A stretch of 34,338 nt of DNA, from contig CAJQKW010000126.1 in assembly GCA_905478975.1 (NCBI GenBank), forward strand, positions 1 to 34,338, in the 5' to 3' direction. The position numbers and the translations under genes are program-made. This document shows positions 6,973 to 33,675 of the stretch, piece by piece. Positions within the stretch are counted from its first letter, which is position 1. Every line of letters begins with the position of its first letter. The notes below the pieces were generated by a model. It made no database searches. It saw only the letters and a list, made by a program, of their open reading frames with translations, and had not been told where the DNA came from. The stretch is from an uncultured Pseudomonadales bacterium. GTDB lineage: Bacteria; Pseudomonadota; Gammaproteobacteria; Pseudomonadales; Porticoccaceae.

Positions 6973-7000
6973 ATTTTTCTCGTCATTTTAGCAATCATAA

Positions 7001-8251: not shown

Positions 8252-8297
8252 GTTTAACGGTCGACCCAATAGCGGTTAATAACTTCTATTGGAGCAA

Positions 8298-8315: not shown

Positions 8316-8474
8316 TAGAAGAAAACTGACAACCTCAGCCCTTAAAAACGACAAACAGGCGAAAAAAGTCAATAATGGCAGTTAAATTCAAACTATGGAC
8401 TAGATCTGTTGTATATAAATGCCGTCAACCCTACACTGCCAAGATCAAAAAAATTAAAAAATAAGGCCCTCAGC

Positions 8475-9464
8475 ATGCCTAAAAAAGCTAGCCCCAACAA
8501 AATATCCCCAAGCCTTTCGGTGGGCTTTGTGCTTATGCCGAGCTTTACCCTACTGCCCTTTTCCGCCTTTATTGATGCCCTGCGTCTGGCCGCGGATGAA
8601 GGCGATCAGAGCCAACAAATAAACTGCCACTGGACCGTAATGGGGCCCAATCTCGAGCCTATCTCTTCCAGCTCTGGGGTCCAGGTTAAGCCCTGGGAAA
8701 CCTATCGCGATCCAGTGGAATTTGACTATATAGTGGTGGTCGGTGGACTGCTGCAAAAAACCTTGCAGGGCAGCCAACATGTGATCGATTATTTGCAACA
8801 GGCGGACCGCGCCCATGTGCCTATTATTGGGCTCTGCACCGGTTCCTTTGCGATGATTCGCGCGGGCCTGATGCACCAGCGGCGCTGCTGTGTCAGCTGG
8901 TTTCACTACAAGGATCTGACTGATCAGTACAGCGATGTGATTGCGGTGGCGGAACAGCTGTTTGTCGACGATGGCGATCGCATTACCTGTGCTGGCGGCG
9001 CTGTGGCGGCTGATCTAGCGGGCTATATTATTGAGCGTCATTTAGGACAGAGCTGGGCGCGCAAGAGCCTGCGTATACTGGTGATGGATAATCCGCGACC
9101 GGCCAATGCGCCGCAGCCACAACCGGCATCGGATTATCAGGTAAATAATAAGTGGGTAAAACGGGCGCTGTTGTTGCTCGAACAAAATCTCAGCCGTCCT
9201 CTAGCGACAGATGAAATTGCCAGCCGCCTGAATATTTCTAAACGCCAGCTTGAGCGTTTATTTATTGCTGAAACCGGAGATAGTTTGCAGAAGTTTTACC
9301 GCAAGATTCGCTTAAATTATGGGCTTTGGTTGCTGCAAAATACGCCGCGTTTGATTACCGATATTGCCCAGGAAACAGGCTTTTCGGATACCGCCCATTT
9401 CTCCCGGGCTTTTCGCGCCGCCTTTGATAAAAAACCTACAGAATGCCGCGAGCTTTTTATCTAA
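8475..9464 (+). CDS. GlxA-family transcriptional regulator (DJ-1/PfpI domain plus AraC HTH), sox-linked
   Basis: 329 residues from the ATG at 8475 (AAGG about 9 bp before); a TTG at 8409 would add 22 residues with no ribosome site. Residues 15-190 form a DJ-1/PfpI-like sensing domain with the elbow G-L-C-T-G-S-F-A; the last 100 residues are an AraC double HTH (I-S-K-R-Q-L-E-R-L-F and G-F-S-D-T-A-H-F-S-R-A-F). This architecture is shared by GbdR, CdhR and SouR, which sense betaine/dimethylglycine, carnitine and sarcosine. Divergence from soxBDAG suggests a sarcosine-responsive (SouR-like) role. It converges on the GbdR-like gene across a hairpin-rich gap. Confidence 0.85.
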   Translation: MPKKASPNKISPSLSVGFVLMPSFTLLPFSAFIDALRLAADEGDQSQQINCHWTVMGPNLEPISSSSGVQVKPWETYRDPVEFDYIVVVGGLLQKTLQGSQHVIDYLQQADRAHVPIIGLCTGSFAMIRAGLMHQRRCCVSWFHYKDLTDQYSDVIAVAEQLFVDDGDRITCAGGAVAADLAGYIIERHLGQSWARKSLRILVMDNPRPANAPQPQPASDYQVNNKWVKRALLLLEQNLSRPLATDEIASRLNISKRQLERLFIAETGDSLQKFYRKIRLNYGLWLLQNTPRLITDIAQETGFSDTAHFSRAFRAAFDKKPTECRELFI

Positions 9465-9557
9465 AGCCCGAGGCTTTTTATTGCGTGAAGCTCAGGGCCT
9501 TTTGTTACATAAAGCTCAGGGCTGTTTTAACCTAACGCCCGCGGCTCTTTTAACCTA
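9463..9557. terminator. Tandem hairpin array, bidirectional terminator region
   Basis: AAAGCC-CGA-GGCTTT followed by T-runs at 9463-9479 is a short intrinsic terminator for the plus-strand regulator. It is the first of about four imperfect units of roughly 24 bp (starting near 9464, 9488, 9512 and 9536), two sharing AAGCTCAGGGC and two sharing TTTTAACCTAA. The array separates two convergent genes, and its last unit reaches into the end of the GbdR-like gene. Confidence 0.55.
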
Positions 9558-10545
9558 AAGCACGGCGCTCATTACTCGGCGGTTTACCATAGAGTTCACT
9601 GTAGCAGCGGCTAAAATGCGGCGCGGTGGAAAAGCCACAGCTAATGGCTACATCAATCACTGGGATAGAGGTTTGCAGCAGTAATAGGCGCGCCCTGGAG
9701 AGACGCAGTTCAAGATAATATCTAGACGGCGCGCAGTGTAAATAGCGATTAAATAAACGCTCTAACTGACGTCTTGAAATACCCACATAGTTAGCCACTT
9801 CATCCAAGGTTAGGGGTTCTTCAATATTGCTTTCCATCAGCGTGACCGCATCCACTAAGCGCGGTTGGCTGGCACCGATCAAGTACTGTAATGGCGCCCG
9901 CTGGGCATCTTTTTCCGTGCGCACACGATCACAGGTAAATTGTTCTGAGATCTGCTGCACTAACTGATGGCCATGGATACTGGCAATCAGATTAAGCATC
10001 AGGTCAATGGAGCTAATACCCCCAGAACAGGTATAGCGATCACGGTCTATTGCAAATAGATTTGACGATAAATGTAACTTGGGAAATTCCTCGCGCATGC
10101 TGGCGAGGTTTTCCCAGTGAATGGTGCAGCGATAGCCATCCAATAAACCGGCTTTGGCGAGGGCATAAGTCCCGGTGCAGAGGGCACCCAGGGGGATTTT
10201 TCTCTTGGCGAAAACACGCAGACGATCGGTAAGTAACTTGGTGCAATACTGCTTAATATTGTAGCCACCGCAAACCAGTAATATTTTCACTTCAGTGGCG
10301 CTGTCCAGTGCGCTATCCAGGGCCCCATCAAGCTGCACTTCAAGTCCAGAGCTGGACGTTACCGGTTCACCGGTCGAGCTATAGACTGACCAGCGATACA
10401 GCTCACGACCACTGATACGGTTGGCCATACGCAGGATACCCACGGCATTGGAGAAGGTACTCAGGGTATATTCAGGCATTAATAGAAACCCTATATGCAG
10501 GGTTACTACAGGTTCAACGGGGTCTACAGAGATATCATCGGACAT
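9550..10545 (-). CDS. gbdR: GbdR-like regulator of betaine/dimethylglycine catabolism (GlxA/AraC family)
   Basis: 331 residues from the ATG at 10545, preceded by AGAAGG at good spacing; the GTG at 10572 lacks a site. The DJ-1/PfpI-like domain has the elbow G-A-L-C-T-G-T-Y-A-L-A-K-A-G-L-L-D-G followed by C-T-I-H-W-E-N, closely matching GbdR. The C-terminal AraC HTH has I-S-R-R-Q-L-E-R-L-F and G-F-S-T-A-P-H-F-S-R-C-Y. GbdR activates betaine and dimethylglycine genes in Pseudomonas when these are present. Here it lies directly downstream of the methyltransferase operon on the same strand with a 129-bp gap, so it may have its own promoter. Orthology is by motif and context. Confidence 0.8.
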   Translation of the reverse strand: MSDDISVDPVEPVVTLHIGFLLMPEYTLSTFSNAVGILRMANRISGRELYRWSVYSSTGEPVTSSSGLEVQLDGALDSALDSATEVKILLVCGGYNIKQYCTKLLTDRLRVFAKRKIPLGALCTGTYALAKAGLLDGYRCTIHWENLASMREEFPKLHLSSNLFAIDRDRYTCSGGISSIDLMLNLIASIHGHQLVQQISEQFTCDRVRTEKDAQRAPLQYLIGASQPRLVDAVTLMESNIEEPLTLDEVANYVGISRRQLERLFNRYLHCAPSRYYLELRLSRARLLLLQTSIPVIDVAISCGFSTAPHFSRCYSELYGKPPSNERRALG

Positions 10546-10674
10546 TTTTAAACGCCTTCTTATAAGTGCCACTTCTTTTTGGTAGCATCTTTTGAGTATA
10601 GATCAACAAGTCAATTTTTAAGTAGCGTTTTTAGACCTATATCAGCACCTTTTTTCGCAAAAAGAAAACAAACC

Positions 10675-12729
10675 TTAGCGTCGCCGACGCTTTCTGCCAC
10701 CGCCGTTATCTGCAACCTCTTTGACTGGCGGTCGAGTTACTAGGGAAAATAGATTAGGAAAGGCATCGGCCTTATTGGGAAAGGCCATGGCATCGACAAA
10801 ATAATCCTGAAATTTTGGCTCCAGAGCAGTTTCAATTTTCTCAATATTTTTAACCAGCGTTTCAATTAGGTCTCGAGATTGACGATTGAGTAGCGCAATG
10901 CGCGCGCCGGTGCCCGCGGCATTGCCCGCCGAGGAAACCTCTTCCAAGACACAGTCGGGAATTAAACCCAAGACCATGGCATGTTGCACATTGATATGGC
11001 TGCCAAAGGCCCCGGCCAGACGGATACGTTCAATCTTGTCCGTGCCTATATGATCCATTAGCAACTTCACCCCCGCATAGAGAGCGGCTTTGGCCAGCTG
11101 GATTTGGCGAATATCATTTTGTGTTATCAGCATCTGCGGCTGATCAGTGGCTGAATCGGAGGCTGAATAAGAGCTGCCGTCACCTAATGGAGAGTATAAA
11201 AGGTAGGACCAGGTACGATCATTTTGCACCATTCTATGGGTGCGATTAACCAGTTCACCGTCGACAATACCGTCCACCGTCACTATGCCTGCCAGATACA
11301 TCTCAGCAACCACTTCGATAATGCCCGAACCACAGATACCGGTGACGCCGTGATGCTCAATGGCGGCACTAAAGCCCTCTTCATCAGACCAGAGATCCGA
11401 GCCAATCACTTTAAACCGCGGCTCCAAGGTTTCTGGATTGATACGCACTCGCTCAATAGCTCCGGTGGCAGCTCGCTGACCGCAACTAATTTGCGCCCCC
11501 TCAAAGGCTGGCCCTGTGGGACTAGAACAGGCCAGTAGGCGCTGGCGATTGCCCAGTACAATTTCAGCATTGGTGCCCACGTCGACCAGCAAGGTCATCT
11601 GATTCTGTTCCTGAGGCTCTTCCGAGAGAATCATACCGGCAGTATCGGCGCCCACATGACCGGCGATACAGGGCAAAATATAGATGCGCCCGCCGGGATT
11701 AATCTTTAGTTCCAACTCCGCAGCCGGCACTTCAACCGCAGCATCGGTGGTCAGGGCAAAGGGTGCGCCGCCCAATTCCACCGGGCTAATGCCAAGCAAG
11801 ATATGGTGCATAATCGGGTTGGCGACCAAGGTGATTTCAAGAATATCCTCAACAGTGCTATTGATGGCCTCGGCCACCTCCGCAAAGAGACTGTTTAGCG
11901 CTTCACGGATCACCACTGTCATTTCATCCGCCCCCTCTGGATGCATCATCACATAGGAGACGCGACTCATAAGGTCTTCGCCAAAGCGAATCTGCGGGTT
12001 CATCAGACTGGCGCTGGCCATCACTTCGCCGCTGGAGAGATCACAGAGATGGGCGGCAATGGTGGTTGATCCCACATCCACCGCCACGCCATAGGCCTTA
12101 TCGCGAAAGCCGGGCCAGAGGGCAATAATCTGCTGATTGTTATAGACGGCGACTGTGATGGCGCGTTTGCCTTTGGCCAAAACTGGCTGCAAGGTTTTTA
12201 GCAGTGCGTTATCACAGGCTAGATGGGGTAGCTCCCATTCCTGTTCAAGGGCTTCAATCAGCCGTTGCAGATCACCCTTGGGTACATGCATATCGGCTTC
12301 GTCTACTTGCACGTAATACAGCCGCGTCGCCGGGTCGAGATGGATATCTCGGTACTCCGCGTCTTTGCGTACGATCTGTCTGTGAACCTGGCTTTCCGGG
12401 GGCACATCGATGACAACATCGTCCAATAGCAGGGTGTGGCAACTTAGACGACGGCCATTGGCGAGGGGTGTTTTACGCTCGCCATATTTGATTTCCGTGG
12501 CGCAAACAGCAGACAAATGGCTGCTATCTGAGTCGATTTGATGTTTCGGAAAAGAGCCTTCAGCACAGATAATCTGGCAGCGACCACAGAGGCCACGACC
12601 ACCACAGACCGAGTCAATATCAACCCCTAAAACCCGCGCGGCATGGAGTAGCGGCGTATTCACCGCAAAGCTGCCACGGCGTCCAGAGGGGGTAAAAACC
12701 ACTTTCACCTGTTTATCTGTCTTATCCAT
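10675..12729 (-). CDS. RACo-type corrinoid activation protein (2Fe-2S ferredoxin plus ASKHA ATPase)
   Basis: 684 residues from the ATG at 12729 (a GTG at 12738 would add three; ribosome site unclear for both). Residues 1-100 form a plant-type ferredoxin domain with cluster cysteines C42-x5-C48-x2-C51 and C97. A linker follows, then an ASKHA fold with phosphate motifs D-V-G-S-T-T (218-223) and V-D-V-G-T-N (about 378). RACo/RamA-like proteins use ATP to re-reduce inactive Co(II) corrinoid proteins. Being last in the operon with the corrinoid methyltransferases fits exactly. The C-terminus ends in G-G-G-R-K-R-R-R-R, an odd basic tail echoed in two other operon proteins. Domain call is secure; the partner is inferred. 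Confidence 0.92.
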   Translation of the reverse strand: MDKTDKQVKVVFTPSGRRGSFAVNTPLLHAARVLGVDIDSVCGGRGLCGRCQIICAEGSFPKHQIDSDSSHLSAVCATEIKYGERKTPLANGRRLSCHTLLLDDVVIDVPPESQVHRQIVRKDAEYRDIHLDPATRLYYVQVDEADMHVPKGDLQRLIEALEQEWELPHLACDNALLKTLQPVLAKGKRAITVAVYNNQQIIALWPGFRDKAYGVAVDVGSTTIAAHLCDLSSGEVMASASLMNPQIRFGEDLMSRVSYVMMHPEGADEMTVVIREALNSLFAEVAEAINSTVEDILEITLVANPIMHHILLGISPVELGGAPFALTTDAAVEVPAAELELKINPGGRIYILPCIAGHVGADTAGMILSEEPQEQNQMTLLVDVGTNAEIVLGNRQRLLACSSPTGPAFEGAQISCGQRAATGAIERVRINPETLEPRFKVIGSDLWSDEEGFSAAIEHHGVTGICGSGIIEVVAEMYLAGIVTVDGIVDGELVNRTHRMVQNDRTWSYLLYSPLGDGSSYSASDSATDQPQMLITQNDIRQIQLAKAALYAGVKLLMDHIGTDKIERIRLAGAFGSHINVQHAMVLGLIPDCVLEEVSSAGNAAGTGARIALLNRQSRDLIETLVKNIEKIETALEPKFQDYFVDAMAFPNKADAFPNLFSLVTRPPVKEVADNGGGRKRRRR

Positions 12730-12745
12730 GCCTTCCACTATTTAT

Positions 12746-13639
12746 CTAAGCTCTTTTTCTGCGACCGCCACGAACTCGCCCTTCCCCTTCGGGAACCGGC
12801 TCGCGATAGGCTTTAATCCAGTTGGCGCAGTTGGGATCATTGCCCATCATTACATCGCCGCCGCGCACTGCCGCCATCACTTCTGCATGCAGTGGACTGG
12901 TGATAGCTGAGGTCATTCCTGCACCCATGGCCATGGTTAAAAAGGCACTGTTAATACCATTGCGATTGGGCAGACCAAAGCTGACATTGGAGGCGCCACA
13001 GGTGGTGTTGACTCTTAGCTCTTCCCGCAGACGACGGACTATATGCATCACCTGTAGACCCGCGGTATTAATAGCGCCAATGGGCATAACCAGGGGGTCG
13101 ACAATCACGTCGCTGTAGTGAATGCCGTAATCCGCGGCGCGCTCGATAATCTTCTTGGCCACTTTAAAACGTTCATTGGGATCTTCAGAGATACCGGTTT
13201 CGTCGTTTGATATGGCAACAACAGCTGCACCGTATTTGGCCACCAAAGGCAGCACCCTCTCCAGCACTTCATCTTCGCCGGTGACCGAGTTGACCAGGGC
13301 CTTACCCTGATAGACTGCCAAACCCGCCTCCAGTGCTTCAATAATCGAAGAGTCGATACTCAGGGGCACATCGCTGATCGACTGCACCAGCTGAATGGCT
13401 TCCGCCAGAATACGGGGTTCATCCGCCAGTGGAATACCGGCGTTAATATCCAGCATCTGCGCACCGGCAGCAATCTGTGCTAGAGCATCGGCTTCTACAC
13501 GACTGTAGTCACCCACTTTCATTTCTGCGGCTAAAATTTTCCGCCCAGTAGGATTTATGCGTTCGCCGATAATCACAAAGGGCTGATCAAAGCCGATTTT
13601 GACTTCTCTTGTGGCGGAACTGATAGTGGTGATGGTCAT
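12746..13639 (-). CDS. Methyltetrahydrofolate:corrinoid methyltransferase (MtgA/MeTr-like, pterin-binding)
   Basis: 297 residues from the ATG at 13639 (GGAG 7 bp before); a TTG at 13651 is less likely. A pterin-binding TIM barrel: I-I-G-E-R-I-N-P-T-G near residue 24, L-D-I-N-A-G, I-D-S-S, and the A-S-N-V-S-F-G-L-P-N-R signature of the MeTr/AcsE/MtgA group. It moves methyl groups between methyl-Co(III) corrinoid and THF. Beside an MttB-type enzyme the expected direction is corrinoid to THF, giving 5-methyl-THF for MetF. At 297 residues it is too short for MetH and lacks other MetH domains. The tail reads G-R-V-R-G-G-R-R-K-R-A. Confidence 0.92.
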   Translation of the reverse strand: MTITTISSATREVKIGFDQPFVIIGERINPTGRKILAAEMKVGDYSRVEADALAQIAAGAQMLDINAGIPLADEPRILAEAIQLVQSISDVPLSIDSSIIEALEAGLAVYQGKALVNSVTGEDEVLERVLPLVAKYGAAVVAISNDETGISEDPNERFKVAKKIIERAADYGIHYSDVIVDPLVMPIGAINTAGLQVMHIVRRLREELRVNTTCGASNVSFGLPNRNGINSAFLTMAMGAGMTSAITSPLHAEVMAAVRGGDVMMGNDPNCANWIKAYREPVPEGEGRVRGGRRKRA

Positions 13640-13654
13640 GCCGTTCTCCAAAAA

Positions 13655-14641
13655 TTATCGTTGTGGGTGCCAGGGAGTTCGACTTCCCAGTACCTGAGTT
13701 TTTTCTACAATTTCAGCGATCCGCTCTTCTTGGCGATAGGCCATAATATGCACGCCGCTGGCGCCCTCTATTTCGCGAATCTCATTGATCATATGGATAC
13801 AGATATTCACGCCTTCCTGCTTCTGGTCCTGGGCTCCCGCCAAACGTTTAATAATGGCATCGGGAATATGCACACCGGCAACATTCTTGCGAATCCACTC
13901 GGCAGACTTGGCCGAGGCCAGTGGGCCGACACCGGGCAAAATAAAGACTTTTTCGTGGAGCCCCAAATCACGCACTTTCGCCATATAGGTCTTGAGCATA
14001 TCAATATCAAAACAGTACTGAGTCTGGATAAACTGGGCACCGGCGGCGACTTTTTTCGCCAGTCGCAGAGGCCGATAATCAAACGGCGGCGCGAAGGGAT
14101 TGGCCGCTGCGCCCAAAAATACCTGGGGTGGCGAAGTGATTTTGCGGCCACTGAGAAACTGACCGTCGTCGCGCATACCCTTGAGCATTTGCAGACTGGT
14201 CATGCAGTCCATATCAAATACTGGCTTGGCTTCTGGATGGTCGCCGGACTGCACACCGTCGCCGGTTAAACAGAGAATATTCGACACGCCCATGGCCGAG
14301 GCACCGAGCACATCCCCCTGCATGGCAATGCGGTTTTTATCCCGACATGAAATCTGCATAATCATCGAGTAGCCGCGGCGGGTTAACAGCGCACACATAC
14401 CGACACTGGACATATGGCAGTTGGCACCAGAGCCATCGGTGGCATTAATCGCATCCACATAACCATCAAACAGCGCGGCGCGGTCAAACACTTCTTGAGG
14501 GTCGGCAGAATCCGGTGGCGCTATCTCAGCGGTCACGGCAAAGTGACCGGCGCGCAACACCCGTTCAAAGCGACCGGGGGAATCGTGGCCCGGCAGTATC
14601 GGCAGATTCTCTCCGGCTAGGGGTTCGTCGTCAAAGGTCAT
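13655..14641 (-). CDS. metF: Methylenetetrahydrofolate reductase (MetF family)
   Basis: 328 residues. MTHFR TIM barrel with V-T-A-E-I-A-P-P at the start (the catalytic Glu of the family), C-L-T-G-D-G in the middle and I-Q-T-Q-Y-C-F-D near residue 205. MetF interconverts 5,10-methylene-THF and 5-methyl-THF using FAD. In this operon it probably runs towards methylene-THF, oxidising methyl groups taken from the corrinoid. It starts within the MetV-like stop (ATGA) and ends 15 bp before the MtgA-like gene. A separate methionine-pathway metF is expected elsewhere in the genome. Confidence 0.92.
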   Translation of the reverse strand: MTFDDEPLAGENLPILPGHDSPGRFERVLRAGHFAVTAEIAPPDSADPQEVFDRAALFDGYVDAINATDGSGANCHMSSVGMCALLTRRGYSMIMQISCRDKNRIAMQGDVLGASAMGVSNILCLTGDGVQSGDHPEAKPVFDMDCMTSLQMLKGMRDDGQFLSGRKITSPPQVFLGAAANPFAPPFDYRPLRLAKKVAAGAQFIQTQYCFDIDMLKTYMAKVRDLGLHEKVFILPGVGPLASAKSAEWIRKNVAGVHIPDAIIKRLAGAQDQKQEGVNICIHMINEIREIEGASGVHIMAYRQEERIAEIVEKTQVLGSRTPWHPQR

Positions 14642-15096
14642 AGTCTGGCTCTCACTCTTTTACGCACAGCATGCAGCCAAGCACTGGTGCCTTTAAGGCG
14701 GACATCCACAGGGGCCTGAATCACTTGAATGGTGGACTCAAGGTTGCCGACAAGCTTGCTACCCTCCCAGGAGGTCACCCAGACGCAGACCATGTTCGGA
14801 TCAACCTCACAGTTGCCATTGCTGCGCACGCCGCCACAGGGGCCATTGCGGAGGGTTTTCGGGCAATTCATGGGGCAGGCCATACCGGTTTCGCCGAGAG
14901 TACACTGACCACAGGATTGGGAGTCGAACAAGAAGCCTTTAATCACTTTTTCTATGGCGGCAAAACCGCGGTCTAGGCGCTGATAGCCGAGACGGTTAAG
15001 TAGCGGATGCAGTGCCACCAAGCCGCTTTCTAGCCCTTGGTAGACGCGACGCAACCAGCGGGCATTGTTAGCCGACCAGTAACGAACCCGCTTCAA
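14638..15096 (-). CDS. MetV-like protein (MTHFR C-terminal zinc/Fe-S domain, PF12225)
   Basis: 152 residues, with seven cysteines at 62, 65, 74, 78, 87, 96 and 104 in the blocks S-C-G-Q-C, M-A-C-P-M-N-C-P-K, G-P-C-G-G-V and G-N-C. This is the MetV/MTHFR_C pattern that accompanies MetF in acetogens and other C1 metabolisers. It is thought to bind zinc or Fe-S and pass electrons to or from MetF. It overlaps metF and the PF13769 gene by 4 bp each, so a MetF-MetV complex is likely. The first 50 residues are basic with no recognised motif. Confidence 0.87.
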   Translation of the reverse strand: MKRVRYWSANNARWLRRVYQGLESGLVALHPLLNRLGYQRLDRGFAAIEKVIKGFLFDSQSCGQCTLGETGMACPMNCPKTLRNGPCGGVRSNGNCEVDPNMVCVWVTSWEGSKLVGNLESTIQVIQAPVDVRLKGTSAWLHAVRKRVRARL

Positions 15097-15401
15097 GCGA
15101 TCTCTACTCTGAGGCCTTTGCTGGCGACCAGCTGCTTAATATCGGCGTCGGAATAGGCGGCTTCGATAGCATCGGCAAACTGCTGGGCCAATTCCTGGGG
15201 ACTGCCCTCTCCTTCGATTGAACTGGTGAAACGGCGCCAGTCTTCTAAATACTCTTCGCTGCCACCCTTACCGGCACGCATAGCGGCGCGATCTATAGCC
15301 GCCTGAAAACGATGACTAAGAAGCACCTTGCCACGGACTCGGCCACTTTTGACCAGAATCTGAGCTGGGATATCACGCCAAAATACTTCAATTTTTTGCA
15401 T
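15093..15401 (-). CDS. 'Virulence factor' domain protein (PF13769-like), function unknown
   Basis: 102 residues, soluble, no signal peptide. The start M-Q-K-I-E-V-F-W-R-D-I-P-A-Q and the block R-F-Q-A-A-I-D-R-A-A-M-R-A-G are typical of the small family named 'virulence factor'. The family name says nothing about role. In this and similar corrinoid-folate clusters the gene sits between DUF1638 and the MetV-like gene. Its 4-bp overlap with the latter argues for an accessory role in MetFV or the corrinoid step. No cysteines or metal motif are visible, so a binding or scaffold role is more likely than catalysis. Confidence 0.75.
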   Translation of the reverse strand: MQKIEVFWRDIPAQILVKSGRVRGKVLLSHRFQAAIDRAAMRAGKGGSEEYLEDWRRFTSSIEGEGSPQELAQQFADAIEAAYSDADIKQLVASKGLRVEIA

Positions 15402-15422
15402 CGGGTTGCTCTCTCTTCATGC

Positions 15423-16061
15423 TTATACAATCTTCAAGATCTGTTGTTGAAGACCATTTTCTAGGTCGCCATAACCACTCTGTTCATGGCGAAATTCCAA
15501 ACCTAAAAATGCTGCCGCCGCTTTCGCTCTAACTACCAAGGCTGGATCCTCTCTCTGAGACAGATACACCACCAGCTTGTAATTGGCGAAATACTGATCG
15601 CGCAGCTCTGGATGCTTATCCAGCTTTAGCCCTTTAATCATTAAGCGATCAAAGTGCTCAACCAAAAAATCGGTCAGGTAAAAACTGCCCAACTCCTCTT
15701 CTGCAATCTCGGTAAAGCGCGCTTCACCGGCATAAAAAGAATAGCAGTGGGCACCGGGCAGTCGCTCCACAGAGTCTCCGGCCTCGGCCAAGACTCGATC
15801 AATCTCACCACCGGTACCGCAGTCGCCATAGGCAACAAAAATATGCTGGTACTGATTGCGATATTGAGCAATCTTTTCCCGCAGTTTCTGGGGGATTTGT
15901 TTCGGCCTGTTATGTAACTCGGCATCTAAACATTGCAGATCGATCTGACCCCAACCATTGTGCTTTTGCAGCCAGACTATCTCTCGGGCCAGGGCGCCAC
16001 AGGCAATCACCAATAACTTGCCCGGAACGACTGAGCCAGTGACTGGGCTCGCGACGGTCAT
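15423..16061 (-). CDS. DUF1638 family protein, corrinoid-methyltransferase-linked
   Basis: 212 residues. The DUF1638 hallmarks are present: A-C-G-A-L at 20-24, L-H-N-R-P at 49-53 and Y-G-D-C-G-T-G-G at 78-85, with C21, C44 and C81 as candidate metal or corrinoid contacts. The family recurs beside MttB-type methyltransferases, including in methanogens, but has no assigned function that I know of. Its ATG shares one base with the corrinoid-protein stop (TAATG), so it is made in step with that protein. An insertion, chaperone or corrinoid-handling role is conceivable and is inference only. Confidence 0.85.
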   Translation of the reverse strand: MTVASPVTGSVVPGKLLVIACGALAREIVWLQKHNGWGQIDLQCLDAELHNRPKQIPQKLREKIAQYRNQYQHIFVAYGDCGTGGEIDRVLAEAGDSVERLPGAHCYSFYAGEARFTEIAEEELGSFYLTDFLVEHFDRLMIKGLKLDKHPELRDQYFANYKLVVYLSQREDPALVVRAKAAAAFLGLEFRHEQSGYGDLENGLQQQILKIV

Positions 16062-16759
16062 TAGGCCGCCTCTAGGGCTCTGCGTTCCTGGACCAAACGA
16101 ATCGCCGTGGTAGCTGCATCCGCAGCGTCGCGACAGTAGGCATCGGCGCCAACCGCAGTGCCAAATTCTTCATTCAGCGGCGCACCGCCAACCATGACAA
16201 TATATTTTTCGCGCAGGCCATGATCTTTCAGGGCATCAATCACTACTTTCATATAGGGCATGGTGGTGGTGAGCAGAGCGGACATGCCCAAAATATCGGG
16301 TTTGTGACGTTCGAGAGCGGCGAGATATTCTTCGACACTATTGTTAATACCCATATCGTGAACTTCGAACCCTGCGCCTTCCATCATCATCGCTACCAGG
16401 TTTTTGCCGATATCATGGATATCCCCTTTAACCGTGCCAATCACCATGGTGCCCACGGGCTTGGCCCCGGTCTCGGCTAAAAGAGGCTTGAGAATAGACA
16501 TGCCACCTTTCATAGAGTTCGCCGCCAGCAGTACTTCCGGGACAAACAAAATGCCGTCGCGAAAATCCACACCGACCACGGTCATACCGTCCACCAGCGC
16601 TTCACCTAAGACGCGCTCTGGGGACCAGCCTCGATCCAAGAGAATCTGTGTACCCTCTTCGATTTCTTCTTTTAAGCCGTCGTAGAGATCGTCATGCATC
16701 TGCAAAACCAGATCTGCATCGGATAACTCAGTTAGTACAATATCGTCTTCTTCAGACAT
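16061..16759 (-). CDS. Corrinoid (cobalamin-binding) methyl carrier protein, MtgC/MtbC-like
   Basis: 232 residues. An N-terminal helical cap domain (about 15-95, with G-I-L-F-V-P-E-V-L-L-A-A) precedes a Rossmann B12-binding domain with G-D-I-H-D-I-G-K-N at 112-120, where H115 is the lower cobalt ligand. G-M-S-A-L-L-T-T and V-G-G-A-P are the other cobalamin contacts. It carries the methyl group as methyl-Co(III) from the MttB-family enzyme to the MtgA-like enzyme. It lies 38 bp after the MttB-family gene. The substrate follows that of its partner. Confidence 0.95.
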   Translation of the reverse strand: MSEEDDIVLTELSDADLVLQMHDDLYDGLKEEIEEGTQILLDRGWSPERVLGEALVDGMTVVGVDFRDGILFVPEVLLAANSMKGGMSILKPLLAETGAKPVGTMVIGTVKGDIHDIGKNLVAMMMEGAGFEVHDMGINNSVEEYLAALERHKPDILGMSALLTTTMPYMKVVIDALKDHGLREKYIVMVGGAPLNEEFGTAVGADAYCRDAADAATTAIRLVQERRALEAA

Positions 16760-16797
16760 GGGGTTTATTCCTCAAGACTCTTGCTTATTAGTCATGC

Positions 16798-18351
16798 TTA
16801 GTAGTCGCGGTCGGCATAGGAGCCTTTGCGACGGGCCATAAAATCAATCAATGCTTCGTCGATCGCCGGGTCAAATGCCGGTGCCTGATAATCATTGAGG
16901 TTTTTTTTCCACAGCAGATTAGCGCGCTGTGCAGTATCCAGAGAACCGTCTACCTGCCACTGCTCATAGCTATTATTGTCCGCTACAGTTGAGCGGTAGA
17001 ATGCGGTTTCAAAATTCTTCAGGGTGTGGGCTGAACCCAGGTAATGTTTACCGGGACCCACTTCACGGACAGCATCTAGCGCCTGACCGTTCTCGGACAT
17101 ATCCATACCCGAGAGCAGTACAGAGATCATGCTGGCCTGATCGCAGTCCATAATAAATTTCTCATAACCCATAGCCAGCCCCCCTTCTAACCAACCGGCG
17201 GTGTGCAACATAAAATGTACGCCGGCCAGGGCTGCGGTCTGCAATGTGTTAGCGGCTTCATAGGCGGCCTGAGCATCGGGTAACTTGGAGCCGGTGAGTC
17301 CACCGCCACTTCTAAAGGGAACGCCCAGTCGACGTGCCAGTGCCGCAGCGGCATAGATAACTTGGCTTGGCTCTGGGGTACCAAAGGTAGGTGCGCCAGT
17401 GGCCATAGACACTGCCGCAGCAAAGGTTCCAAAGATAACCGGTGCGCCGGGACGACAGAGCTGAGTAAAGGCGATACCGGCCAGAGCTTCCGCCAGGATC
17501 TGGGTCACAGTGCCCGCTGCGGTGACCGGCGACATGGCCCCAGCCAGAATAAAGGGTGAGACTACTGTGGCCTGATTATTCCGCGCATAGACTTTGAGGG
17601 AACCGAGCATGGTGGCATCGTAGGTCATGGGAGAGTTGACATTAATCAGGCTGGTAAGCACGCAGTTTTGGTCGACAAACTCATCGCCAAAGACCAGCTT
17701 GGCCATATCCACTGTGTCCTGAGCGCGCTCATGGTGAGTCACTGAACCCATCAGAGGTTTGTCGCTGTATTTAAAGTGGCTGTAAATCATATCGAAGTGG
17801 CGTTTGTTTACTGGCAGATCCACAGGCTCACAGATAGTGCCGCCGGAATGGTGAATCCCCGGTGCCATATAGGCCAGTTTTACAAAATTTTGAAAGTCTT
17901 CAATGGTGGCGTATCTGCGACCCTTGTCGATATCATGGACGAAAGGTGAACCATAGGCCGGCACTAATACCGTGCGCTTGCCGCCAATAATCACATTGCG
18001 TTCTGGGTTGCGCGCGTGCTGCACAAATTCGCGTGGCGCCGTGGCCTGAATAATCGAGCGACAGAGACCCTTGGGGAAATGCACGCGAGAGCCTTTTACA
18101 TCTGCACCGGCTGCGGTCCACATGGCCAGCGCTTCGGGGTCATCGAGAAAATCGATACCGATCTCTTCGAGCAAGATATCCGCATTGTCTTCGATAAGCT
18201 GCAGATTCTCTTCGCTGAGGTATTCGAAATAGGGAATCTTGCGCTCGATAAAGGGCGCGGTTTTGACTACTGCATTGGCACGAGTTTCACGGCGTCCGTC
18301 ACGGCCACCACCCTCTCTACCCGCTCTTCTACGCCCAGTTGTTTCAGTCAT
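16798..18351 (-). CDS. MttB-superfamily methyltransferase without pyrrolysine (glycine-betaine MtgB-like)
   Basis: 517 residues from the ATG at 18351; GGAAG sits 8 bp before it but abuts the alternative ATG at 18357. The COG5598/MttB TIM-barrel core runs from about residue 40 (E-R-K-I-P-Y-F-E-Y-L) to the C-terminus. No in-frame amber codon interrupts the gene, so it belongs to the non-Pyl branch, whose studied members demethylate quaternary amines such as glycine betaine, proline betaine, carnitine or gamma-butyrobetaine. Downstream dimethylglycine and sarcosine enzymes make glycine betaine the simplest substrate. Residues 7-25 are Arg/Gly-rich (G-R-R-R-A-G-R-E-G-G-G-R). A 124-bp structured gap separates it from the dehydrogenase gene upstream. 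Confidence 0.9.
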   Translation of the reverse strand: MTETTGRRRAGREGGGRDGRRETRANAVVKTAPFIERKIPYFEYLSEENLQLIEDNADILLEEIGIDFLDDPEALAMWTAAGADVKGSRVHFPKGLCRSIIQATAPREFVQHARNPERNVIIGGKRTVLVPAYGSPFVHDIDKGRRYATIEDFQNFVKLAYMAPGIHHSGGTICEPVDLPVNKRHFDMIYSHFKYSDKPLMGSVTHHERAQDTVDMAKLVFGDEFVDQNCVLTSLINVNSPMTYDATMLGSLKVYARNNQATVVSPFILAGAMSPVTAAGTVTQILAEALAGIAFTQLCRPGAPVIFGTFAAAVSMATGAPTFGTPEPSQVIYAAAALARRLGVPFRSGGGLTGSKLPDAQAAYEAANTLQTAALAGVHFMLHTAGWLEGGLAMGYEKFIMDCDQASMISVLLSGMDMSENGQALDAVREVGPGKHYLGSAHTLKNFETAFYRSTVADNNSYEQWQVDGSLDTAQRANLLWKKNLNDYQAPAFDPAIDEALIDFMARRKGSYADRDY

Positions 18352-18419
18352 AATCATTCTTCCGTTGGAGAGTTTTTTCTCTCTTTTATGGGATCTTTAT
18401 TGCTCGCAGTCTGTGCCTG

Positions 18420-18479
18420 TTTAGGCGCTGCCGCATCTGCTTCTACGACACTGAAATATCAGTTTGCGACGCGCCTAAA
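18420..18479 (-). promoter_or_regulatory. Long stem-loop between the dehydrogenase and MttB-family genes
   Basis: TTTAGGCGC and GCGCCTAAA are perfect 9-bp inverted repeats spanning 60 bp, with CTGA-AATA-TCAG nested in the loop. A further GAGAG/CTCTC stem lies just before the MttB ribosome site near 18364-18384. In the minus-strand transcript this would form a strong hairpin shortly after the dehydrogenase stop. It could act in processing, attenuation or mRNA stability. No T-run typical of full termination follows. Confidence 0.45.
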
Positions 18480-18481
18480 AA

Positions 18482-21001
18482 CTAGCTTCGCAAACAGCTA
18501 TTTTCGCCGTCAAAAGGTGACTCTTCGATAATCGTTGCTCGGTAGCGATCACCGAGAATTTCAATCTCCAATTCGGTGCCTATGGCGCCATAAGCGGCCT
18601 TCACCAGACCCAGCGCTAGAGACTTATTGGTGCGAAAGCCAAAGCCCCCAGAGGTAGCTCGGCCTATCAACAGATCATCGCAGTAGAGTCCTTCAGAACC
18701 CCGGGCATCAGCATCGATGACGCCATGAATCTCCAAGGTGGCGAAACAATTATCAAAACCGCGCTGTTGCCAGGCGATCAGCGCCTGCTTACCGACAAAA
18801 TCGCAGTCTTTATCAAGTTTTACAAAACGCTCTAAACCGGATTCAAGGGCGGAGTATTCAATCGACATCTCACGGGGAATCAGACGATAGGATTTCTCGA
18901 TGCGCATACTCTCCATTGCGCGAATACCAAAGGGCTTAATATTGAACTCGGCGCCAGCCTTCATCAGCTCATCGAAGATATAGTTTTGCATCTCTATGGG
19001 ATGGTGCAGCTCCCAGCCCAGCTCGCCAACAAAGTTAACCCGCAGCGCTTCGGCCTGGGCATAACCCACATTGATGGATTTGCCGGTGAGCCATTTAAAG
19101 TTGTCCTTAGACATATCGGTGTCAGTGAGCTTTTGCAGCAGCTCCCGAGACTTGGGGCCAGCGACTACAAGAACACCCATCTGGGTGGTGATTTTTTGCA
19201 GATTAACCGAGCCATCTCGCGGTGCCAGCTTGGTGAGATAGTCCCAGTCATGGCGCTCTTGGGAACCGGCAAAGACCAGATAATAGCTGTTTCTAGCGCG
19301 CTTATAGATGGTGAATTCGGCCCGTACACCGCCGTTTTTAGAGAGCATATGGCAGAGGCCAATGCGCCCAACGGCCTTGGGTATATTGTTGGCGACAATG
19401 CTGTTTAGCCAAGCTTCTGAGCCATGACCGGTGACTGTGGCTTTGGAGAAGGCCGACATATCGAGAACACCAACATGCTGATTTACATGGCGACATTCCT
19501 CACCGACAAAATCAAAGTAATTGGAGCGGCGGAAGGAATTCTTTTCCACAATGCGGCCATCGGCCAGGGCTTTTGAATGATTTTTATTCCACAGGGTATC
19601 TGACTTATTGAGGTCTTCAGCCGACAGGGAATATCCGGGAGGGGCAAACCAGTTGGGTCGCTCCCAACCATAGACCGAGCCAAACACTGCACCTAACGCT
19701 TTCATACGATCGTAACAGGGGGTCGTTTTTAGCGGCCGAGCCGCACCTCGCTCTTCATCTGGATAATGGTTTTTGAACACATGGTCATAGGCTTCTTCGT
19801 TTTTGCTGCGCAGATAACCGCGGGTTGCATAGGGTCCAAAACGACGGGGATCGACGCCCATCATATCCACAGTGGGCTCACCATCAACAATCCATTCCGC
19901 CAACTGCCAACCGGCACCGCCGGCAGCGGTTATACCGAAGCTATGGCCCTCATTGAGCCAAAAGTTTTTCAAACCCCAGGCTGGGCCAACAATGGGGTTG
20001 CCGTCAGGCGTATAGGCAATAGCACCGTTATAGACAGTCTTGATGCCCACCTCGGCAAAGCCGGGAACCCGCTCCATACAGGCTTCAATATGGGGCATTA
20101 GGCGATCGAGATCGCCATTAAACAGCTCGTATTCCGAGTGCTCGCTGGGGCCGTCTACATAACAGCATGGGGCGTTCTCTTCATAGGGGCCGAGAATAAA
20201 ACCGCCGGCCTCTTCGCGCAGATAATAACCGGCGTCGGAATCACGCAGCACGGCCTGCTCGGGAAGCCCTTGGGCCTTGCGCGCCAGAATATCGGGGTGT
20301 GGGTCGGTGACAATATACTGGTGTTCAACTGGAATAACTGGGATATCCAGACCCACCATCTCACCGGTCTTGCGAGCAAAATTGCCGGTGCAGCAGACAA
20401 CCTGCTCACAGTGGATATCACCCTTGTCGGTTTTCACAATCCAGCTATCATCGGGCTGTTGTTCAAGATCCAGCACCGCGGTGTTGCGATAGATCTCTGC
20501 GCCGCGAGAACGCGCGCCTTTGGCCAGCGCCATAGTCAGATCAGCAGCCTGAATATAACCGTCATCTGGATGCTGAATCGCACCGATAACGCCGTCGAGA
20601 TTGGCCATTGGCCAAACGTCTTTGACCTGTTCCGGGGTTAAAAAATTCACCTCGACACCGACGGTCTGGGCCACTCCTGAGTAGTATTTATACTCATCCA
20701 TACGATCTTGGTTAGAGGCCAAGCGAATATTAGACACCACACTGAAGCCGACATTCTGGCCGGTCTCTTTTTCCAGCTCATGGTAAAAGTCCACAGAATA
20801 CTGGTGTAATTTACCCACCGAGTAACTCATATTAAACAGCGGCAGCAGACCCGCAGCGTGCCAGGTGGATCCGGACGTGAGTTCTTTACGCTCAATCAAC
20901 ACCACATCGGTCCAGCCTTTTTTCGCCAGATGATAGAGAGTGCTAACGCCGACTACGCCACCGCCCACGACCACTACTTTTGCACTTGTTTTCATCGCCA
21001 T
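18482..21001 (-). CDS. Dimethylglycine/sarcosine dehydrogenase-like flavoprotein (FAD plus GcvT)
   Basis: 839 residues. N-terminal DAO-type FAD fold: G-G-G-V-V-G at 13-18, then S-T-W-H-A-A-G with H48, the position of covalent FAD attachment in DMGDH. A central FAO-type linker region is followed by a GcvT aminomethyltransferase C-terminal half (V-G-V-L-D-M-S-A-F-S-K onward) that binds THF. It oxidises an N-methyl group and gives 5,10-methylene-THF. With soxBDAG in the same island handling sarcosine, dimethylglycine is the likely substrate, which would link the MttB-family product to SoxBDAG. Sarcosine dehydrogenase is the alternative. It is first in the operon, divergent from fhs; an ATG two codons in is also possible. 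Confidence 0.85.
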   Translation of the reverse strand: MAMKTSAKVVVVGGGVVGVSTLYHLAKKGWTDVVLIERKELTSGSTWHAAGLLPLFNMSYSVGKLHQYSVDFYHELEKETGQNVGFSVVSNIRLASNQDRMDEYKYYSGVAQTVGVEVNFLTPEQVKDVWPMANLDGVIGAIQHPDDGYIQAADLTMALAKGARSRGAEIYRNTAVLDLEQQPDDSWIVKTDKGDIHCEQVVCCTGNFARKTGEMVGLDIPVIPVEHQYIVTDPHPDILARKAQGLPEQAVLRDSDAGYYLREEAGGFILGPYEENAPCCYVDGPSEHSEYELFNGDLDRLMPHIEACMERVPGFAEVGIKTVYNGAIAYTPDGNPIVGPAWGLKNFWLNEGHSFGITAAGGAGWQLAEWIVDGEPTVDMMGVDPRRFGPYATRGYLRSKNEEAYDHVFKNHYPDEERGAARPLKTTPCYDRMKALGAVFGSVYGWERPNWFAPPGYSLSAEDLNKSDTLWNKNHSKALADGRIVEKNSFRRSNYFDFVGEECRHVNQHVGVLDMSAFSKATVTGHGSEAWLNSIVANNIPKAVGRIGLCHMLSKNGGVRAEFTIYKRARNSYYLVFAGSQERHDWDYLTKLAPRDGSVNLQKITTQMGVLVVAGPKSRELLQKLTDTDMSKDNFKWLTGKSINVGYAQAEALRVNFVGELGWELHHPIEMQNYIFDELMKAGAEFNIKPFGIRAMESMRIEKSYRLIPREMSIEYSALESGLERFVKLDKDCDFVGKQALIAWQQRGFDNCFATLEIHGVIDADARGSEGLYCDDLLIGRATSGGFGFRTNKSLALGLVKAAYGAIGTELEIEILGDRYRATIIEESPFDGENSCLRS

Positions 21002-21282
21002 CTGTTAACGCCCAATTGTTGGTGATTTTTAGTCTATTTTTTGCAGTTTAACCCTCAATACTAGACCGCCACGGCGCAGATACGACAGTCATATATCCTC
21101 CAGCGCCATAGCCGCAAAACCCTGCCCTGCTTGACCTAGAGTCGTTTTTAGAACAGCATAAGCCGGTCTCAGCTAGCCGCAGCCATGGCGGTTTATGGAA
21201 GATGACCATCAAAGTGACAACGCCGCCGAGAAATAGCCTTGCCTGGCAGTGTTATTGACATAATTAACGGAGTTAGAGCCCC
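21002..21282. promoter_or_regulatory. Divergent promoter region between the methyltransferase operon and fhs
   Basis: The 281-bp gap must hold promoters for both the nine-gene minus-strand operon and fhs. GGAG at 21269-21272 is the fhs ribosome site. I see no riboswitch fold or clear perfect palindrome. A GbdR-type site is expected here from the context but I cannot point to it with confidence. Confidence 0.4.
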
Positions 21283-22950
21283 ATGAGTGATATCAAAATA
21301 GCCCGCAGTGCCACCACCCAACCGATCTCTGAGATTGCTGCAAAGCTAAATATTCCCGATGCAGCATTAATTCCCTACGGCAGAACTAAAGCGAAAATAT
21401 GCCCTGACCATATCGCCTCGTTAAAAGATAAGCCCGACGGCAAATTGATTTTGGTGACTGCGATTACGCCAACCCCAGCAGGTGAAGGTAAAACCACCAC
21501 CTCTGTGGGTCTTACCGACGGACTTAACCGCATTGGCAAGAAGGCTCTGGTGTGCCTGCGCGAACCCAGCCTCGGCCCCTGCTTTGGCATGAAGGGTGGC
21601 GCTGCCGGTGGTGGCTATGCTCAGGTTGTGCCTATGGAAGATATCAACCTGCACTTTACCGGCGACTTTCACGCCATTGGCGCGGCACACAATCTGCTTT
21701 CAGCCTTAATCGACAACCATATTCACTGGGGTAATAGTCTGGAAATAGATGCCCGCCGCATTGTTTGGAAGCGGGTTGCGGATATGAATGACCGCGCCCT
21801 GCGCAGTATTAACTGTGGTTTGGGTGGCCCGGGCAATGGCTTCCCACGGCAAGATGGCTACGATATTACCGTGGCCTCGGAAGTCATGGCGATCTTCTGC
21901 CTAGCCACTGACTTAGATGACCTTAAAGCGCGCCTCAATAAAATTGTTGTCGCCTACACCCGCGACCACAAGCCAATTCATGCCAGTGAAATACTCGGCA
22001 CCGGCGCCATGACGGTGCTGCTTAAAGACGCCCTGGCGCCGAATTTGGTTCAGACCCTAGAGAACAACCCAGCGATTATTCACGGCGGCCCCTTCGCCAA
22101 TATAGCCCATGGTTGCAACTCGGTTATCGCTACCAAAGCGGGTCTTAAAATGGCCGACTATGTGGTGACCGAAGCCGGCTTTGGTGCTGATTTAGGCGCT
22201 GAAAAATTCTTTGATATTAAATGCCGTGCCGCAGGCCTACATCCCGATGCCGCGGTGATCGTCGCCACAACTCGGGCGTTAAAAATGCACGGCGGTGTCG
22301 GTAAAGAAGATCTCGACAAAGAAGATCTCACCGCTCTTGAAGATGGCTGCTGTAATCTGGTTCGCCATATTGAAAATGTAAAAGCCTTTGGCGTGCCAGT
22401 GGTGGTGGGTATCAACCGCTTCACCTCAGATACAGACGCAGAAATTGCCCTGATCAAAAAGATTGCCCTGGCCAATGGCGTTAAAGCCATCGACTGCACC
22501 CACTGGGCGGATGGCGGTGCTGGCACTGAAGAGCTGGCCCATGAAGTGGTCGAAATGGTGGATTCAGGTCATGCCAATTTTGCCCCACTGTATCCTGACG
22601 ATATGCCGATTTGGGAGAAGATTAAAACGGTTGCCACTAGGCTCTACCGGGCCGACGATATTATTGCTGATCAGAAAATACGCGACCAGATTCAAAAGCT
22701 GCAAGACAGTGGCTATGGGCATTTCCCGGTCTGTATTGCCAAAACTCAGTACAGTTTTTCAACCGATCCGACGCAAAAGGGCGCACCCTCTAATCATGTT
22801 GTGGCCATTCGTGAAGTGAGGTTATCGGCCGGTGCGGGCTTTATCGTGGTGGTCTGTGGGGATATTATGACGATGCCGGGGCTGCCGCGGGTGCCTGCGG
22901 CGAATAGCATTGATATGAATGAACAGGGTGAGGTTGTTGGGTTGTTTTAA
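21283..22950 (+). CDS. fhs: Formate-tetrahydrofolate ligase
   Basis: 555 residues, the normal length. P-loop T-P-A-G-E-G-K-T-T at 64-72, [16 protein letters not shown] and the N-terminal P-Y-G-R-T-K-A-K family signature are present. Fhs interconverts formate, THF and ATP with 10-formyl-THF. Beside this betaine island it probably drains C1 units coming from methylene-THF as formate, with ATP gain, or supplies formyl-THF. The bifunctional folD step is not in the window. It is divergent from the methyltransferase operon and followed by a terminator. Confidence 0.97.
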
Positions 22951-33659: not shown

Positions 33660-33675
33660 TCCTGCCTGATGCACA

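What the first reader, a model, noticed from the sequence alone, without database searches (positions are those of the whole stretch)
10675..22950. Anaerobe-style corrinoid demethylation module wired into an O2-using betaine pathway
Seen: a Pyl-free MttB-family enzyme, corrinoid protein, MtgA-like enzyme, RACo, MetF and MetV-like protein in one operon led by a DMGDH-like flavoprotein, with fhs divergent, and soxBDAG plus GbdR-like regulators next door. Known: MtgB/MtgC/MtgA demethylate glycine betaine in anaerobes, whereas well-studied aerobes use Rieske GbcAB or BHMT for that first step; neither is in this window. Inferred: the first methyl is taken without O2 and conserved as methyl-THF, while the next two go through flavin enzymes to methylene-THF. 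This would conserve methyl groups and suit low or fluctuating O2, but needs B12 and RACo to protect Co(I).
Basis: partly seen in the sequence, partly recalled or inferred. Interest (0 to 1): 0.8.

Follow-up and report, generated by a model that had tools for sequence, protein, structure and literature searches.

The report
Vitamin-B12 betaine demethylation operon in SAR92
A marine bacterium of the SAR92 clade carries a vitamin-B12-based gene set that very probably strips the first methyl group from the osmolyte glycine betaine without oxygen; this route was published in 2025 for other aerobic marine bacteria, and what looks new here is how the harvested methyl group is oxidised and how the genes are jointly controlled.

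Summary
One tight operon (10675-21001, minus strand) encodes a DMGDH-like enzyme, a Pyl-free MttB, an MtgC-like corrinoid protein, DUF1638, PF13769, MetV, MetF, an MtgA/MtgD-type methyltransferase and RACo; fhs is divergent, soxBDAG and GbdR-like regulators adjacent. The genome is SAR92-like; the isolate HTCC2207 has the same gene order.

Added here: (1) a GTCGYTTTT element in both the demethylase and sox promoter regions (13 of 14 and 11 of 11 loci); (2) MttB and SoxD together in 48 of 112 family genomes, one alone in 4; (3) GbcA over cut-off in 0 of 112, and no CbiC/CobH over cut-off, so B12 is probably imported; (4) MetH in 22 of 26 good MttB genomes, so no methionine-synthase role is needed; (5) methyl-THF is handled by MetV+MetF, a type described as anaerobic, and five relatives carry a distant, SYK-6-like MetF in that slot. 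Substrate and reaction direction are untested; the low-oxygen claim has no support.

The parts
18482..21001 (-). dimethylglycine dehydrogenase-like flavoprotein, first gene of the operon
   Evidence: DAO/FAO_M/GCV_T; solved dimethylglycine dehydrogenases 4pab, 4p9s, 5l46 at 625-626 bits
16798..18357 (-). MttB/MtgB-type methyltransferase without pyrrolysine, proposed glycine betaine:corrinoid methyltransferase
   Evidence: PF06253 749.8 bits; 44.9% identity (210 of 468) to D. hafniense MtgB; Y135, N239, R349, H385 conserved
16061..16759 (-). MtgC-like corrinoid protein, contains DIHDIG
   Evidence: PF02310 + PF02607; MtgC models 195.1 and 167.8 bits, below their cut-offs 370 and 310; motif printed
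15423..16061 (-). DUF1638 protein, proposed corrinoid reactivation partner
   Evidence: PF07796 101.9 bits; link to B12 reactivation in P. inhibens (PMC5764234, passages); invariant C21, H50, C81, H105, C106 in 33 rows
15093..15401 (-). PF13769 small protein of unknown role, operon member
   Evidence: 69.6 bits; 18 invariant columns in 33 rows
14638..15096 (-). MetV-like iron-sulphur subunit of methylene-THF reductase
   Evidence: PF12225 87.8 bits; seven cysteines invariant in 29 of 29 rows, NGPCGG in 29 of 29
13655..14641 (-). MetF subunit, frame overlaps metV by 4 bp
   Evidence: PF02219 127 bits; overlap
12746..13651 (-). methylcorrinoid:THF methyltransferase (MtgA/MtgD type)
   Evidence: PF00809; NF005719 359.5 bits, cut-off 259
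10675..12738 (-). RACo-type ATP-dependent corrinoid activator with an N-terminal 2Fe-2S domain
   Evidence: RACo linker, middle and C-terminal domains and Fer2; 3zyy E 1.1e-84
9550..10572 (-). GbdR-like AraC regulator, next gene downstream of RACo
   Evidence: NF052371 431.6 bits, cut-off 480
8409..9464 (+). second GbdR-like AraC regulator, divergent from soxB
   Evidence: NF052371 180.8 bits
3043..8269 (-). soxB-soxD-soxA-soxG, heterotetrameric sarcosine oxidase
   Evidence: TIGR01373, TIGR01372 and TIGR01375, PF04267
21283..22950 (+). fhs, formate-THF ligase, divergent from the operon
   Evidence: NF010030 913 bits, cut-off 652
21141..21168 (+). operator-like element GTCGTTTTTA...GGTC in the fhs/dmgdh intergenic region
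   Evidence: GTCGYTTTT in 13 of 14 loci
8328..8352 (-). operator-like element GTCGTTTTTA...TTGTC in the soxB/regulator intergenic region
   Evidence: GTCGYTTTT in 11 of 11 loci

Best explanation
This is the glycine betaine regulon of a SAR92-clade marine gammaproteobacterium. MttB (acting as MtgB) moves one methyl of glycine betaine to Co(I) on the corrinoid protein without using O2. The pterin-binding methyltransferase moves it to THF. RACo, probably with DUF1638, restores Co(I) when it has been oxidised to Co(II). MetV-MetF then oxidises methyl-THF to methylene-THF, and FolD (not seen in the window) and Fhs run on to formate with ATP gain. The DMGDH-like enzyme and SoxBDAG take the other two methyls to methylene-THF, leaving glycine. 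A GbdR-like activator probably switches both operons through the shared GTCGYTTTT element. Methionine is made separately by MetH. Shown here: gene content, conservation of order, conserved pocket residues, co-occurrence, shared promoter element, no GbcA over cut-off, MetH present. Inferred: substrate, direction of each reaction, which regulator binds, electron acceptor of MetVF.
For: Gene identities. Same 13-gene order in HTCC2207 and seven other loci. Y/N/R/H proposed for betaine binding in MtgB (docking, PMC6855144, passages) identical in window, D. hafniense MtgB and 80 of 80 orthologues, and not kept in 5 of 5 distant paralogues. MttB and SoxD both in 48 of 112 family genomes, MttB alone in 1 (a fragment), SoxD alone in 3. 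GbcA over cut-off in 0 of 112. Shared promoter element. MtgC and MtgD mutants of R. pomeroyi lose growth on glycine betaine, and MetF2 is the most differentially synthesised protein there (PMC12478193). In five relatives the metVF slot holds a MetF like 7xg9 (L012: E 4.4e-45); the SYK-6 MTHFR is reported to oxidise methyl-THF (PMC12585457, whole text), and I recall, not from a call, that 7xg9 is that enzyme.
Against: No activity or expression data exist here; in the parts of Mausz et al. that I read no MttB of R. pomeroyi was knocked out either. The fifth pocket position (F/Y353 in MtgB) is glycine here. MtgC models score below cut-off. At E 1e-60 or better, Rieske proteins scoring 256-338 bits against the GbcA model (cut-off 670) occur in 24 of 112 family genomes, 22 of them MttB carriers, so a Rieske oxygenase of unknown substrate often co-occurs, though not in this genome or HTCC2207 at that level. 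Many MttB orthologues stand without the module: mtgC lies directly downstream in 44 of 80 fetched loci. The assembly is about 80% complete. Co-occurrence counts are not independent: the genes are linked and the genomes related.
Confidence: 0.8

Rival explanations
1. Same machinery, but MttB acts mainly on another quaternary amine (proline betaine, carnitine, gamma-butyrobetaine) or on DMSP; the dimethylglycine and sarcosine steps serve a separate supply.
For: MttB-superfamily members differ in substrate (PMC12478193 names MtpB, MtyB, MtcB, MthB); on the Paracoccus methylovorus plasmid the module lies a few genes from a carnitine 3-dehydrogenase gene; the fifth pocket residue differs from MtgB.
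Against: Four of four proposed betaine-binding residues kept; the DMGDH gene leads the operon and sox shares its promoter element; near-perfect co-occurrence with SoxD.
Confidence: 0.13
2. Split methionine synthase, as in Phaeobacter and Ruegeria: the corrinoid protein and pterin methyltransferase mainly feed homocysteine methylation.
For: MtgC and MtgD have this dual role in R. pomeroyi; the homologues serve methionine synthesis in P. inhibens. Two panel genomes, G006 (L009) and G008 (L012), do have a stand-alone PF02574 protein with an open frame of 363-368 aa, which could be an MtgE or a BHMT.
Against: MetH is present: cut by a contig end in this genome, an open frame of 1261 aa in HTCC2207 with no second PF02574 protein; MetH activation domain in 22 of 26 good MttB genomes of the family.
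Confidence: 0.04
3. The module works mainly under low oxygen, Rieske or other oxygenase routes taking over in air.
For: The corrinoid step needs no O2 and Co(I) is oxygen-sensitive (established chemistry); some relatives also carry a GbcA-like Rieske protein.
Against: R. pomeroyi, called aerobic by its authors, uses the route for growth on glycine betaine (PMC12478193); no GbcA over cut-off in this genome or HTCC2207; the coupled sox step is expected to use O2 itself.
Confidence: 0.08

Closest known systems
MtgBCD glycine betaine demethylase of Ruegeria pomeroyi and other marine Pseudomonadota (Mausz et al. 2025, PMC12478193)
   Same: MttB-type enzyme, MtgC-like corrinoid protein, pterin methyltransferase, RACo/RamA-type activator, DUF1638, a MetF; aerobic host; the paper also reports such genes clustered with the later demethylation steps in marine Gammaproteobacteria.
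   Different: MetH kept, and no MtgE found in this genome or HTCC2207; MetV and PF13769 present (the terms MetV, SAR92, HTCC2207 and virulence occur 0 times in that paper's main text).
MtgBCA of Desulfitobacterium hafniense
   Same: Same reaction scheme; MttB 44.9% identical to MtgB.
   Different: SAR92-type host; corrinoid protein below the MtgC model cut-offs; coupled to DMGDH and sarcosine oxidase.
Chloromethane pathway CmuA/CmuB/MetF2 of Methylorubrum extorquens CM4 (PMC3621897, passages)
   Same: Aerobic corrinoid methyl transfer to THF with a dedicated MetF; the alternative MetF of relative L012 is 35.6% identical over 86% of its length to a MetF on pCMU01, presumably MetF2.
   Different: Other first enzyme and substrate.
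MetFV-type methylene-THF reductase of acetogens (PMC8515935, passages)
   Same: metV upstream of and overlapping metF, NGPCGG motif, conserved cysteines.
   Different: Aerobic clade and presumed oxidative direction; short MetV (152 aa). That paper says MetFV exists mainly in anaerobic bacteria, and its figure legend calls these types found only in strict anaerobes.
LigM/S6MTHFR module of Sphingobium SYK-6 (PMC12585457, whole text)
   Same: Demethylation to methyl-THF followed by oxidation to methylene-THF; the alternative MetF resembles solved MTHFR 7xg9.
   Different: Aromatic O-demethylation; the paper's scheme has no corrinoid step.

Membership tests
MtgB (non-Pyl MttB, glycine betaine methyltransferase) | PF06253 enzyme without pyrrolysine | tested here: met
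   749.8 bits, open frame of 519 aa
MtgB (non-Pyl MttB, glycine betaine methyltransferase) | Proposed glycine betaine pocket Y94, N199, R309, H345 | tested here: met
   Y135, N239, R349, H385; 80 of 80 orthologues, 0 of 5 distant paralogues; the pocket itself is a docking proposal and chain 9yce was numbered with an offset of one chosen to fit the published letters
MtgB (non-Pyl MttB, glycine betaine methyltransferase) | Glycine betaine:Co(I) methyl transfer | not testable with these tools
   needs enzyme assay
Aerobic MtgBCD demethylase (Mausz et al.) | mtgB, mtgC, mtgD with RamA/RACo and DUF1638 | tested here: met
   one operon
Aerobic MtgBCD demethylase (Mausz et al.) | Dual use as split methionine synthase with MtgE in place of MetH | tested here: not met
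   MetH present; the only PF02574 protein of this incomplete genome and of HTCC2207 is MetH. So only the betaine branch is claimed, not the dual enzyme
MtgC of anaerobes (NCBIfam NF047996, NF047995) | score over curated cut-off | tested here: not met
   195.1 against 370 and 167.8 against 310
MetFV-type methylene-THF reductase | metV upstream of metF, NGPCGG, conserved cysteines | tested here: met
   (29 of 29 rows)
MetFV-type methylene-THF reductase | one or two [4Fe-4S] clusters | tested here: inconclusive
   seven invariant cysteines; cluster content needs protein
GbcAB glycine betaine monooxygenase | GbcA over curated cut-off 670 | tested here: not met
   best in this genome 118.6 bits; 0 of 112 family genomes
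BHMT | stand-alone PF02574 protein in this genome | tested here: not met
   the only PF02574 match is MetH; assembly about 80% complete
RACo | 2Fe-2S, linker, middle and ASKHA domains | tested here: met
   3zyy E 1.1e-84. The AcsV model of NCBIfam is not reached: 369 bits, cut-off 800
GbdR | score over curated cut-off 480 | tested here: not met
   431.6 bits for 9550-10572 and 180.8 for 8409-9464

The most novel reading that the evidence does not exclude
An iron-sulphur MetV-MetF enzyme of the type known from anaerobes works in aerobic marine bacteria as a methyl-THF dehydrogenase, passing electrons to a high-potential acceptor rather than to NAD+. It is interchangeable in the same operon slot with a distant single-subunit MetF of the SYK-6/chloromethane kind. 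Together with a GbdR-type operator shared with sox, it makes a dedicated glycine betaine regulon, uncoupled from methionine synthesis, in bacteria that must import B12.
Probability: 0.4. Interest if true: 0.6.

Novelty: new member of a known kind. Interest (0 to 1): 0.42.

Why it matters
It places the SAR92 clade, which is abundant in coastal waters (PMC6588378), among the likely B12-dependent consumers of glycine betaine, and suggests that B12 supply limits betaine turnover in a group that seems unable to make the corrin ring. It also gives a natural experiment, MetVF swapped for another MetF in the same slot, for asking how aerobes oxidise methyl-THF and where the electrons go.
Full report
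What is there. The operon at 10675-21001 (minus strand) reads, in order of transcription: DMGDH-like flavoprotein, MttB, corrinoid protein, DUF1638, PF13769, MetV, MetF, pterin-binding methyltransferase, RACo. From mttB on the gaps are 38 bp or less, three junctions overlapping by 1-4 bp; after the DMGDH gene there is one gap of 124 bp, and 281 bp separate it from divergent fhs. SoxBDAG lies at 3043-8269 and two AraC-type regulators at 8409-10572. The closest loci are Porticoccaceae/SAR92: MttB is 97% identical in UBA1989 (L002) and 96% in the isolate HTCC2207 (L004). The 13-gene order from fhs to soxB is kept in 8 of 80 fetched loci (L002, L004-L009, L047), six core genes in order on one strand in 30 of 80, and mtgC directly follows mttB in 44 of 80; the rest are cut by contig ends, rearranged, or carry mttB without the module nearby. 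The GC content of the window is even, 0.49-0.55, so composition gives no sign of a recent island.

Substrate. MttB is 44.9% identical (210 of 468 columns) to D. hafniense MtgB (that 2QNE is this enzyme is stated in PMC9842639 and PMC6855144, passages, and chain 9yce matches the window in the same columns). Residues that docking placed around glycine betaine in MtgB (Y94, N199, R309, H345) align with Y135, N239, R349 and H385. They are identical in 80 of 80 orthologous frames from the fetched loci and not kept in the five distant paralogues in those loci that were long enough to align (two shorter paralogues and one fragment were left out). The fifth position, F/Y353, is glycine here. This supports a quaternary-amine pocket with a carboxylate partner; it does not prove glycine betaine.

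Pathway. The first gene matches solved dimethylglycine dehydrogenases at 625-626 bits and RACo matches 3zyy (E 1.1e-84). Across 112 genomes of the family, MttB occurs in 49 and SoxD in 51, both together in 48; MttB alone in one genome (G029, an 89-residue fragment) and SoxD alone in three. One more of the 49, G070, also has only a short MttB fragment. Linkage and shared ancestry inflate this association, so the Fisher value should not be read as a probability.

Shared control. The fhs/dmgdh and soxB/regulator intergenic regions of SAR92-type loci align with conserved blocks. GTCGYTTTT lies in 13 of 14 of the first and 11 of 11 of the second; of 29 occurrences in the 14 sequences compared (the window and 13 loci), 25 are in these two regions (my sum). 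In the window the 10-mer GTCGTTTTTA occurs three times against 0.03 expected; the third copy is inside the DMGDH gene at 19722. The longer gapped form occurs only at the two promoters, but five of 100 shuffles gave at least two matches. An enumeration of all 8-mers shared by the two sets (at least 9 of 14 and 6 of 11) returned only overlapping pieces of this motif and their complements; reversing either set returned none. That the GbdR-like protein binds it is inference.

First-step alternatives. The three Rieske proteins of this genome score at most 118.6 bits against the GbcA model (cut-off 670). In this genome and 21 genomes behind chosen loci GbcA passes the cut-off in one, Pseudomonas aestuarii (G021); in 112 family genomes it passes in none. 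Weaker Rieske relatives (256-338 bits, E 1e-60 or better) are in 24 of 112, and 22 of those carry MttB: a result that does not fit a simple replacement story. A search for CbiC/CobH found no match over cut-off in 112 family genomes (one, G054, at 19.1 bits against 22.5), while 7 of 14 control genomes rang, so B12 or a precursor is probably imported.

Methionine. PF02965 was not found in this genome, but a MetH frame cut by the contig end was (442 aa, 740.5 bits). HTCC2207 has an open frame of 1261 aa with the MetH homocysteine domain, one PF02574 protein in all and one MttB. Among family genomes at least 90% complete and at most 5% contaminated with an MttB match, 22 of 26 have the MetH activation domain; leaving out the fragment-only genome, 21 of 25. 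Over all 49 MttB genomes, incomplete ones included, it is 31. In the panel of 22, 18 had a PF02574 match; those without were G002, G007, G009 and G013, and G006 and G008 had a stand-alone PF02574 protein besides MetH, as did several genomes outside Porticoccaceae. Mausz et al. report that about 70% (108 of 156) of MtgBCD genomes lack MetH. SAR92 therefore mostly belongs to the minority in which MetH is kept.

Methyl-THF oxidation. Of 80 loci, 40 hold both PF13769 and the pterin methyltransferase; between them lie metV+metF in 25, a distant MetF in 5 (L011, L012, L015, L031, L035), nothing in 8, a metF remnant in one (L021) and one locus is rearranged. The distant MetF of L011, L012 and L015 scores 19.7-22.1 bits against PF02219 (cut-off 24), and the window MetF does not find the L012 copy by phmmer; yet the L012 copy matches the solved MTHFR 7xg9 at E 4.4e-45, which I recall to be the SYK-6 enzyme, and a MetF on the chloromethane plasmid pCMU01 at 35.6%. 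MetF2 of that plasmid is said to be essential for chloromethane use (PMC3621897, passages), and the SYK-6 MTHFR oxidises methyl-THF (PMC12585457, whole text). That two unlike MetF kinds share one operon slot is a good sign that the slot does methyl-THF oxidation. The window's version has a MetV with seven invariant cysteines and NGPCGG in 29 of 29 rows, a type that PMC8515935 (passages) places mainly in anaerobic bacteria in its text and only in strict anaerobes in a figure legend. MetV relatives also occur on plasmids of Paracoccus, Sinorhizobium, Shinella and Azoarcus (36 records matched, 15 listed; 24 of the 36 are Acinetobacter, the listed ones weak), and on the Paracoccus methylovorus plasmid p1 MttB, B12-binding protein, DUF1638, MetV, MetF, pterin methyltransferase and ASKHA activator lie together. 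Whether R. pomeroyi MetF2 is of one kind or the other I could not test.

Prior art. Mausz et al. 2025 (PMC12478193; outline and parts 1-4 of 6 read, and a term search) showed by mutants that MtgC and MtgD are needed for growth on glycine betaine in R. pomeroyi and found homologues in marine Gammaproteobacteria, often clustered with the later steps. MetV, SAR92 and HTCC2207 have no occurrence in its main text; its figures and supplementary datasets were not seen and may show SAR92 or MetV. Price et al. [quoted passage not shown] inhibens. So the core of the finding is known, and this window is a further member with a variant oxidation step.

Verdict. Observation confirmed; interpretation mostly right, but the combination is already published and the low-oxygen argument is unsupported. 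What remains worth testing is the MetV-MetF enzyme in an aerobic clade, its exchange with the SYK-6-like MetF, and the shared operator.

Noticed in passing
L086 (own genome, contig C142) 5072-11262: A second soxB/soxA/soxG-like set, with the second SoxD match between soxB and soxA, follows a frame that reads like formyl-THF deformylase and precedes a LysR-like gene (all names but SoxD from reading only). In the family 37 of 51 genomes with SoxD show two or more matches.
   Followed up: partly
window 15093-15401: PF13769 protein, called virulence factor in Pfam, is a regular member of this B12 operon (found in 42 of 80 loci, DUF1638 in 43); no paper in the library holds the accession. Its role is open.
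   Followed up: partly
window 15423-16061: DUF1638 has invariant C21, H50, C81, H105 and C106 in 33 rows, which could be a metal or redox site.
   Followed up: no
L018, L021, L025, L026, L038: Distant second MttB (27-29% identical) next to DMGDH-like frames, lacking the betaine pocket residues; probably another substrate.
   Followed up: partly
L021 12155-12343: Remnant of metF (last part only) in the slot where others carry metVF: a sign of gene loss.
   Followed up: no
L087 (Paracoccus methylovorus plasmid p1) 5240-13452: A similar B12 gene set a few genes from carnitine 3-dehydrogenase and next to a GlxA-family regulator gene, on a plasmid.
   Followed up: no
family genomes, e.g. G052, G040, G039: GbcA-like Rieske proteins far below the GbcA cut-off, enriched in MttB carriers; substrate unknown.
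   Followed up: no
genomes G006 (L009) and G008 (L012): Stand-alone PF02574 proteins besides MetH, possibly MtgE or BHMT.
   Followed up: no
window 2313-2711 and 23144-23536: Two PIN-domain genes, perhaps toxin parts of toxin-antitoxin pairs.
   Followed up: no
window 27538-29598: GH16 glycoside hydrolase with Ig-like domains, which would fit use of algal polysaccharide.
   Followed up: no
window 31320-34329: Frames that read like a chaperone-usher pilus usher and chaperone (reading only, not searched).
   Followed up: no
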